The notes under the pieces were generated by a model. That model was given only the letters and a program-made list of their open reading frames with translations, searched no databases and was not told the DNA's origin. Below, one piece after another: positions 44,300-45,266 of a DNA stretch of 64,000 nucleotides. The first letter of the stretch is position 1. Each line of letters starts with the position of its first letter. Position numbers and translations under genes: made by a program. The DNA comes from Pseudochrobactrum asaccharolyticum (GTDB taxonomy: Bacteria > Pseudomonadota > Alphaproteobacteria > Rhizobiales > Rhizobiaceae): assembly GCF_003314995.1 (NCBI RefSeq), contig NZ_QNRH01000005.1:130633-194632 (forward strand), written 5' to 3'.

Positions 44300-45187
44300 A
44301 TGACCGCGACAAGCCCTGAAATTCAAGCACAACTTCTCTCAGCCGCGCTGCCTTTCATGCAGCGCTATGAGAATAAAACTGTCGTGGTCAAATATGGCGG
44401 TCATGCCATGGGCGATGCGGCACTCGGCAAAGCCTTTGCCCGCGATATCGCCCTGCTCAAGCAGTCCGGCATCAACCCGATTGTTGTGCATGGCGGCGGC
44501 CCGCAGATTGCGGCAATGCTGGGCAAACTTGGCATCGAGTCCCGTTTTGAAGGCGGTCTGCGTGTGACAGACGCCAAAACGGTTGAAGTGGTTGAGATGG
44601 TTCTCGCCGGTTCAATCAACAAAGAAATTGTGGCGATGATCAATGCCGAAGGCGAATGGGCAATTGGCCTATGCGGCAAAGACGGCAATATGGTTTTTGC
44701 TGAAAAAGCCCATAAGACCTATCGCGATCCGGATTCCAATATTGAGCGCGTGCTTGATCTGGGCTTTGTCGGTGAGCCGGTTGAAGTTGACCGTACCCTG
44801 CTCGATCTTCTGGCACGTTCGGCTGTTATTCCGGTGATTGCACCGGTTGCACCGGGTCGTGACGGCAATACCTATAATATCAATGCCGATACTTTTGCCG
44901 GTGCAATTGCCGGTGCGCTGACTGCAACCCGTTTGCTGTTCCTCACCGATGTGCCGGGCGTTCTGGATAAGGACAAAAATCTGATCAAGGAGTTGTCCGT
45001 TGCTGATGCACTGGCATTGATTGCAGACGGCACCATTTCCGGCGGTATGATCCCGAAAGTGGAAACCTGCATTGAAGCCATTAACCGTGGTGTGGAAGGC
45101 GTGGTTATCCTCAATGGTAAAACCCCCCATGCGGTTCTGCTGGAGCTATTCACGGAGCACGGTGCCGGCACGTTAATCGTGCCGTAA
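44300..45187 (+). CDS. argB: Acetylglutamate kinase
   Basis: 295-residue amino-acid kinase that phosphorylates N-acetyl-L-glutamate, the second step of arginine synthesis. Seen motifs: VVKYGGHAMGD at the phosphate-binding lysine, VHGGGPQI, and the C-terminal GGMIPKVETCI. Length and N-terminal helix fit the arginine-inhibited hexameric type. ATG 44300 has GGAG upstream; a GTG four codons earlier is in frame. The final codons (GTLIVP-stop) are inside the first unit of a 28-bp tandem hairpin repeat. Confidence 0.96.
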   Translation: MTATSPEIQAQLLSAALPFMQRYENKTVVVKYGGHAMGDAALGKAFARDIALLKQSGINPIVVHGGGPQIAAMLGKLGIESRFEGGLRVTDAKTVEVVEMVLAGSINKEIVAMINAEGEWAIGLCGKDGNMVFAEKAHKTYRDPDSNIERVLDLGFVGEPVEVDRTLLDLLARSAVIPVIAPVAPGRDGNTYNINADTFAGAIAGALTATRLLFLTDVPGVLDKDKNLIKELSVADALALIADGTISGGMIPKVETCIEAINRGVEGVVILNGKTPHAVLLELFTEHGAGTLIVP

Positions 45188-45266
45188 CTAACAATGCACG
45201 TTGATCGTGCCATGAACGAAAGAGCACACTTATTGTGCCGTAAAATACAAAGCACACTAGTTGCGT
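45168..45266 (+). repeat. 28-bp tandem stop-codon hairpin repeat at the 3' end of argB
   Basis: Units start at 45168, 45196, 45224 and 45252, exactly 28 bases apart. Hairpins are GCACG-TTAAT-CGTGC, GCACG-TTGAT-CGTGC, GCACA-CTTAT-TGTGC and a decayed GCACA-CTAGT-TGCGT. The G-to-A and C-to-T changes in unit 3 are paired, so the stem is kept. Unit 1 encodes the last residues of ArgB, and its TAA follows the stem directly. The array ends eight bases before the terminator. Confidence 0.85.

What the first reader, a model, noticed from the sequence alone, without database searches (positions are those of the whole stretch)
45168..45266. argB ends in a 28-bp tandem repeat whose units each rebuild a hairpin around the stop codon
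Units begin at 45168, 45196, 45224 and 45252, a strict 28-base period. Unit 1 is coding (last residues of ArgB plus TAA). Units 2 and 3 are non-coding copies with five-base-pair stems. Between units 2 and 3 the inner pair changes from G-C to A-T on both sides, so pairing survives divergence; unit 4 is decayed. This suggests the 3' end of the gene was duplicated and then selected, or regenerated, as RNA or DNA hairpins. Roles could include protecting the mRNA 3' end from exonucleases or binding a protein. I know of no described element with this form.
Basis: partly seen in the sequence, partly recalled or inferred. Interest (0 to 1): 0.72.

Follow-up and report, generated by a model that had tools for sequence, protein, structure and literature searches.

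The report
Repeated copies of a gene's end
The last codons and stop signal of the arginine gene argB are copied several times in a row behind the gene, and in related bacteria these copies come, go and change much like the gene's own end, which points to a recycled DNA repeat more than to a set of purpose-built RNA hairpins.

Summary
The array is real: four units at a strict 28-base period, 45168-45272, the strongest such match in the window. It is not an isolated accident. A copy of the argB end sits 11-12 nt after the stop in 7 of 7 genomes held of the same genus and in 12 of 35 of the genus of G022 (apparently Brucella/Ochrobactrum), but in 0 of 97 other loci. The copies vary like coding DNA: 9 of 13 distinct own-genus copies still spell Thr-Leu-Ile-Val-Pro plus a stop. 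In the other genus, copies share their own gene's synonymous codons (p about 0.0005); in the own genus they do not (p 0.75). Stems are complete (wobbles allowed) in 7 of 14 own-genus copies but in 12 of 14 of the other genus. Best reading: a turnover-prone minisatellite born from the argB 3' end and homogenised with it by slippage or recombination, the hairpin coming along from the coding palindrome. Selection on the hairpin is not excluded: pairing exceeds shuffles. In one species the array lies at the edge of a mosaic block that looks recombined.

The parts
44288..45187 (+). argB, acetylglutamate kinase; its last codons and stop are unit 1 (start codon as listed mechanically; the true start may lie a few codons further in)
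   Evidence: ORF; TIGR00761 250.7 bits against cut-off 151.3
45168..45195 (+). unit 1: coding palindrome GCACG-N5-CGTGC, Pro codon, stop TAA, A-rich spacer
45196..45223 (+). unit 2: non-coding copy, still spells TLIVP + TGA, complete five-pair stem
45224..45251 (+). unit 3: non-coding copy, spells TLIVP + TAA with synonymous changes only, inner pair A-T
45252..45272 (+). unit 4: decayed copy (TLVAS + TAA), stem broken
45274..45302 (.). intrinsic-terminator-like hairpin, 13-pair stem with A run and T run; that it serves both converging genes is inference
   Evidence: fold; a like hairpin follows the array in all 7 genomes held of the genus
45364..46341 (-). converging EamA-family transporter gene
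   Evidence: PF00892 64.7 bits

Best explanation
A lineage-specific minisatellite made from the gene's own end. The last five to six codons of argB, its stop and about ten following bases were tandemly duplicated, probably in an ancestor of this genus and the genus of G022. Since then units have been lost, gained and exchanged by slipped replication or unequal recombination, and a block has entered at least one species from another, so that coding end and copies swap sequence. The hairpin is the palindrome that the codons for Gly-Thr-Leu-Ile-Val-Pro form in this family anyway; the palindrome probably helps slippage. I infer no separate function for the copies. Shown: array, distribution, coding-like variation, agreement of copies with their own gene in the other genus, a mosaic edge at the array in one species. 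Inferred: slippage or unequal exchange as the mechanism, a single ancestral origin, and lack of a selected role.
For: Copy 11-12 nt after the stop in 7 of 7 own-genus genomes and 11 of 35 of the genus of G022 at 11/16 identity or better (12 with L146, which falls below that threshold), 0 of 97 others at that register. 9 of 13 distinct own-genus copies and 6 of 14 listed copies of the other genus translate to TLIVP + stop. Site variability follows synonymous against amino-acid sites (8.5 against 2.5 per site over 25 distinct copies, p 0.0008; own genus alone 4.5 against 0.75, p 0.004), not stem against loop (p 0.40; own genus 0.33). Leu2 and Ile2, in the unpaired loop, are T in 27 and 28 of 28 copies. 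In the genus of G022 first copies agree with their own gene at 41 of 48 synonymous sites, 27.8 expected on permutation, p 0.0005. Sisters L119 and L132 have an identical spacer but differ at one Leu codon in both gene and copy. L125 and L132 share the same palindromic insert between copies, which suggests the array is older than their split. Fewest presence/absence changes on a 40-row tree: 10. G006 is like its sister G005 at 57 of 81 informative sites before the array, like G000 at 89 of 122 from 45330 to 46340, and like G005 again at 69 of 82 after 46400; the first switch lies between 45151 and 45172. No other exact match to the unit pattern in the genome (3 matches, all here). In 287 sampled gene ends argB is alone above the control.
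Against: In the own genus the first copy does not match its own gene better than other species' genes (10 of 28 synonymous sites, 11.3 expected, p 0.75), so homogenisation there must be older, or pass through other units or strains. Synonymous-only divergence is not what a neutrally decaying copy should show unless its time as non-coding DNA is short. Pairing in the copies exceeds shuffles, although related rows inflate that test. In the other genus 12 of 14 copies keep all five pairs, wobbles allowed, including L016, L125, L137 and L146, which differ from their gene inside the stem; L129 and L134 do not. Among synonymous sites, the four in the stem vary less (4, 7, 8, 3 of 25) than the two in the loop (10, 14); coding ends lean the same way.
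Confidence: 0.58

Rival explanations
1. Selected RNA hairpins: each unit is kept because its stem-loop protects the argB mRNA 3' end or binds a protein or small RNA.
For: Pairing 92.8% of cells against 88.0% in shuffles, 0 of 500; covariation score 0.324 against 0.228, 0 of 500. All five pairs kept, wobbles allowed, in 12 of 14 copies of the other genus; L146 changed two outer pairs on both sides. In 131 distinct coding ends across the family the two freely varying stem pairs rank 134 and 574 of 37,964 third-position pairs for complementary covariation. On a tree, Gly3=C with Val3=G goes the same way 7.8 to 0.4 (median p 0.016), Gly3=A with Val3=T 4.0 to 0.1 (0.125), Thr3=G with Ile3=C 4.4 to 0.4 (0.125), Thr3=A with Ile3=T 2.1 to 0.5 (0.5).
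Against: 7 of 14 own-genus copies and 3 of 7 own-genus coding ends (G001, G004, G005) have a broken stem. Stem and loop do not differ in variability over all sites or over amino-acid sites. A strong terminator-like hairpin already follows the array. In the other genus 23 of 35 lack a copy, and 9 of the 12 copies lie ahead of a co-directional gene, not at an mRNA end (read by eye). Of three non-pair controls on the tree one (Gly3/Ile3) also leans 2.5 to 0.2, the others 0.8 to 2.6 and 1.1 to 0.6, so base composition may add to the family covariation. Template switching can repair stems without selection (PMC8794818: abstract and discussion read).
Confidence: 0.21
2. The units act on the other strand as weak terminators or insulators for the converging EamA gene: read on the minus strand each hairpin is followed by a T-rich stretch.
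For: The pattern scan finds terminator-like sites on the minus strand at units 2 and 3; 3 sites in the 701-base region against 0.9 (sd 0.8) in shuffles.
Against: The T tracts are interrupted; a much stronger hairpin lies between the transporter gene and the array; in 9 of the 12 genomes of the other genus with a copy the next gene, as I read, runs in the same direction as argB; L142 has the converging gene, L129 and L150 were not settled.
Confidence: 0.06
3. Plain local expansion, made once or a few times and now decaying, with no continuing exchange with the gene.
For: The 3'-most units are the most decayed in G000 and G002, and the only unit of G006 is decayed; first copies in the own genus do not track their own gene.
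Against: TLIVP + stop kept in 9 of 13 copies; joint change of gene and copy in L119/L132 and the permutation test in the other genus.
Confidence: 0.12
4. Footprints of a site-specific integrase that targets the argB 3' end and rebuilds it at each insertion, leaving attachment-site copies.
For: Gene 3' end, inverted-repeat core around a short centre, and copies that rebuild the gene end are what tyrosine-integrase sites look like (recalled, no call).
Against: Copies are head to tail with an 11-12 nt spacer and nothing between them (except the short insert in L125 and L132); no integrase among the four neighbouring genes that I searched (yihA, argB, EamA gene, pyrimidine 5'-nucleotidase). Neighbours in relatives were not searched.
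Confidence: 0.03

Closest known systems
Bacterial minisatellites / variable-number tandem repeats
   Same: Head-to-tail units of 28-29 bp, copy number varying between species, slippage as the likely source.
   Different: The unit overlaps a gene's stop codon, so one unit is coding and the others are copies of it; the copies vary like coding DNA.
REP elements (repetitive extragenic palindromes; PMC3733652 seen in a search listing only)
   Same: Short palindromes outside genes.
   Different: One locus only: the 3 genome matches of the unit pattern all lie in this array; it derives from the neighbouring gene.
Quasipalindrome / template-switch mutation sites
   Same: An inverted repeat whose arms stay complementary through paired changes; described for RNA stems in PMC8794818 (abstract and discussion read).
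   Different: Here the unit is also tandemly duplicated, and the paired change in the window is at synonymous codon sites.
TAACTGA intergenic direct repeats of Beggiatoaceae and others (PMC4679880, abstract read)
   Same: Intergenic direct repeats containing stop triplets.
   Different: Seven-base units, at many loci, mostly just before start codons.

Membership tests
Minisatellite / tandem repeat array | head-to-tail units of constant period beyond chance | tested here: met
Minisatellite / tandem repeat array | copy number differs between related genomes | tested here: met
   1 to 4 (with the cut-off last unit of G002) non-coding units in 7 genomes of the genus; 0 to 2 by threshold in the genus of G022
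Minisatellite / tandem repeat array | copy number differs between strains of one species | not testable with these tools
   one genome per species held
REP element | dispersed in many copies over the genome | tested here: not met
   3 matches to the unit pattern, all in the array
Intrinsic terminator (units 1-4, + strand) | hairpin followed at once by a T run | tested here: not met
   no + strand site at the units (the scan also did not list the 45274-45302 hairpin, so it is not exhaustive); the bases after the stems are CGTAACTAAC, CATGAACGAA and CGTAAAATAC
Known RNA family (Rfam 15) | match above a family's gathering score | tested here: not met
   15 matches up to E 1 in 44900-45600, all below gathering scores
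Conserved structured RNA | stem kept by compensatory change beyond relatedness and codon effects | tested here: inconclusive
   pairing above shuffles, stems complete in 7 of 14 and 12 of 14 copies, but codon position explains variability and stem/loop does not
Integrase attachment site | an integrated element or integrase gene beside a copy | tested here: inconclusive
   none among the four genes searched around it in the window; relatives not surveyed for it

The most novel reading that the evidence does not exclude
The array is a working reservoir of alternative gene ends: coding end and non-coding copies continually rewrite each other, and the array serves as the crossover point through which species exchange the argB end and the downstream block, so a non-coding satellite helps to set the synonymous codons of an essential-pathway gene.
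Probability: 0.25. Interest if true: 0.55.

Novelty: new variant of a known kind. Interest (0 to 1): 0.36.

Why it matters
It is a warning and a small model system. Base-paired 'compensatory' changes in a bacterial 3' region, usually read as evidence of a functional RNA, here coincide with synonymous codon changes shared with a neighbouring gene end. If the exchange is as frequent as the comparison suggests, the locus would let one watch gene conversion between a coding end and its non-coding duplicates within species.

Tried and rejected
Rfam: nothing above gathering score. Plasmid collection: 11 records, all Sinorhizobium argB ends covering half the query, and no close match. Genome-wide habit of gene-end duplication: of 287 gene ends in the window and 16 stretches of 20 kb, only argB stands out (17/20; next 15/20 and 14/20). 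The in-gene control gave 9 matches of 14 or more over four positions per gene, about 2.3 per set, so those two others are at chance level (which did not print its number of genes). Translation of the copies: rejected for units 2 and 3 of the window by reading the sequence; the frame of unit 2 is closed by a TAA just before it, that of unit 3 by a TGA inside unit 2 with no ATG, GTG or TTG after it; the frame of argB runs on 27 codons to the next stop, so the copies are not back-up stops in that frame. A repeat family elsewhere in the genome: no other exact pattern match; the BLAST search found only 14-22-base matches to the units elsewhere at E 2 to 8. Papers: eight searches; judged by titles and starts of abstracts, none of those listed describes an array at the argB end. 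Only open-licence papers are held, so this is weak evidence of absence.

Caveats on counts. L146's copy was below the threshold and was added by eye. The permutation used first copies only. One search collapsed identical 20-mers. The tree holds 37 of the 42 genomes of the two genera plus three outgroup rows, is a quick tree, and warns of long branches. The G006 switch uses only sites where G000 and G005 differ; between 45200 and 45330, where arrays of unlike length are aligned, the sites are mixed.

Full report
What is there. A 13-pair terminator-like hairpin follows at 45274-45302 and a converging EamA-family transporter gene at 45364-46341. No other exact match to the unit pattern exists in the genome.

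Where else it occurs. The window's genus is held as seven genomes; no tool named it. The named record with an identical ArgB is titled Bacillus subtilis SK6B4, which must be a wrong label. Pseudochrobactrum is my guess, from the kinship with Paenochrobactrum and Brucella/Ochrobactrum argB. All 7 carry at least one non-coding copy 11 or 12 nt after the stop. The genus of G022 contains loci whose shown ends match the named records Ochrobactrum sp. CM-21-5 and Brucella pseudogrignonensis; 11 of its 35 carry such a copy by the threshold, 12 with L146. Of 97 other loci, 0 have one at that place; 4 have a weak match elsewhere. So within what was searched the array is specific to this group and is often lost or gained (fewest changes 10 on a quick 40-row tree).

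What the copies look like. Nine of 13 distinct 20-base copies of the own genus still translate to TLIVP and a stop, although periods of 28 and 29 put them out of frame; in the window neither unit 2 nor unit 3 can be read in that frame from any start that I see. The most variable sites are the third positions of Thr, Leu, Ile and Pro and the first of Leu, then the second of the stop; Leu2 and Ile2, which lie in the unpaired loop, are almost fixed (27 and 28 of 28). Synonymous sites vary 8.5 against 2.5 per site (p 0.0008), stem against loop shows no difference (p 0.40), and among amino-acid sites alone stem and loop vary alike. Against this, the four synonymous sites in the stem vary less than the two in the loop. 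Sequences are related, so these p-values are guides.

Exchange with the gene. In the genus of G022 the first copies match their own gene at 41 of 48 synonymous sites, 27.8 expected on permutation (p 0.0005). In the own genus they do not, 10 of 28 against 11.3 (p 0.75). The clearest single case is the sister pair L119 and L132: same spacer, but CTG against CTT in both gene and copy. L125 and L132 share one palindromic insert between copies, which suggests that this array existed before they split. In the own genus, G006 is like its sister G005 at 57 of 81 informative sites in argB up to 45150, like G000 at 89 of 122 from 45330 to 46340, and like G005 at 69 of 82 from 46400; the edges lie between 45151 and 45172 and near 46372-46391. 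Its two units look like the first and last of G000. One mosaic edge thus falls at the array; one case does not show that arrays attract recombination.

Hairpins. The palindrome exists in many coding ends across the family, because the codons for Gly-Thr-Leu-Ile-Val-Pro tend to spell it. In 131 distinct coding ends the two stem pairs free to vary on both sides rank 134 and 574 of 37,964 third-position pairs for complementary excess, and 3 of 801 and 1 of 268 at like distance. On a tree, paired changes mostly go the same way (7.8 to 0.4 and 4.4 to 0.4 for the commonest pair types, median p 0.016 and 0.125; 4.0 to 0.1 and 2.1 to 0.5 for the A-T types, p 0.125 and 0.5). Of three non-pair controls one leans 2.5 to 0.2, the others 0.8 to 2.6 and 1.1 to 0.6, so base composition may play a part. 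In the copies, 92.8% of cells pair against 88.0% in shuffles. All five pairs, wobbles allowed, stand in 7 of 14 own-genus copies and 12 of 14 of the other genus, in 4 of 7 own-genus coding ends and in 29 of 35 of the other genus. Most of the paired copies of the other genus are simply like their gene; L016, L125, L137 and L146 differ from it inside the stem and still pair, L129 and L134 do not. Template switching can also keep arms complementary without selection (PMC8794818, abstract and discussion read). I put hairpin function at 0.21.

Not a general habit. Among 287 gene ends from the window and 16 sampled stretches of the same genome only argB stands above the in-gene control.

Verdict. 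A real, lineage-specific tandem array of a gene's own 3' end with frequent turnover between species. The part worth a specialist's time is the coding-like variation of non-coding copies and the joint change of gene and copy; the mechanism is ordinary in kind.

Noticed in passing
window 45306-45351: Dispersed intergenic element just after the terminator; 41 matches (itself included) at E 0.001 or better in the window's own genome.
   Followed up: partly
L125 and L132, about 30-70 nt after the argB stop: Both carry the same palindromic insert between two argB-end copies, a possible marker that the array predates their split.
   Followed up: partly
G006 locus (L012, L170), matching window about 45151-46391: A block of about 1.2 kb with the EamA transporter gene looks acquired from a relative of G000; edges at the array and just before the pyrimidine 5'-nucleotidase gene.
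   Followed up: partly
L039 (JAHREI010000007.1): Record titled Bacillus subtilis SK6B4 carries an ArgB identical to the window's; the label must be wrong.
   Followed up: no
L156 18266-19474 (-): Gene whose last codons and stop seem repeated once 27 bases on (15 of 20); at chance level in the control, not pursued.
   Followed up: partly
L142 and, by its first bases, L151: Members of the genus of G022 that seem to keep the converging transporter gene after argB, while 27 of the 29 loci shown run on into the pyrimidine 5'-nucleotidase gene (read by eye).
   Followed up: no
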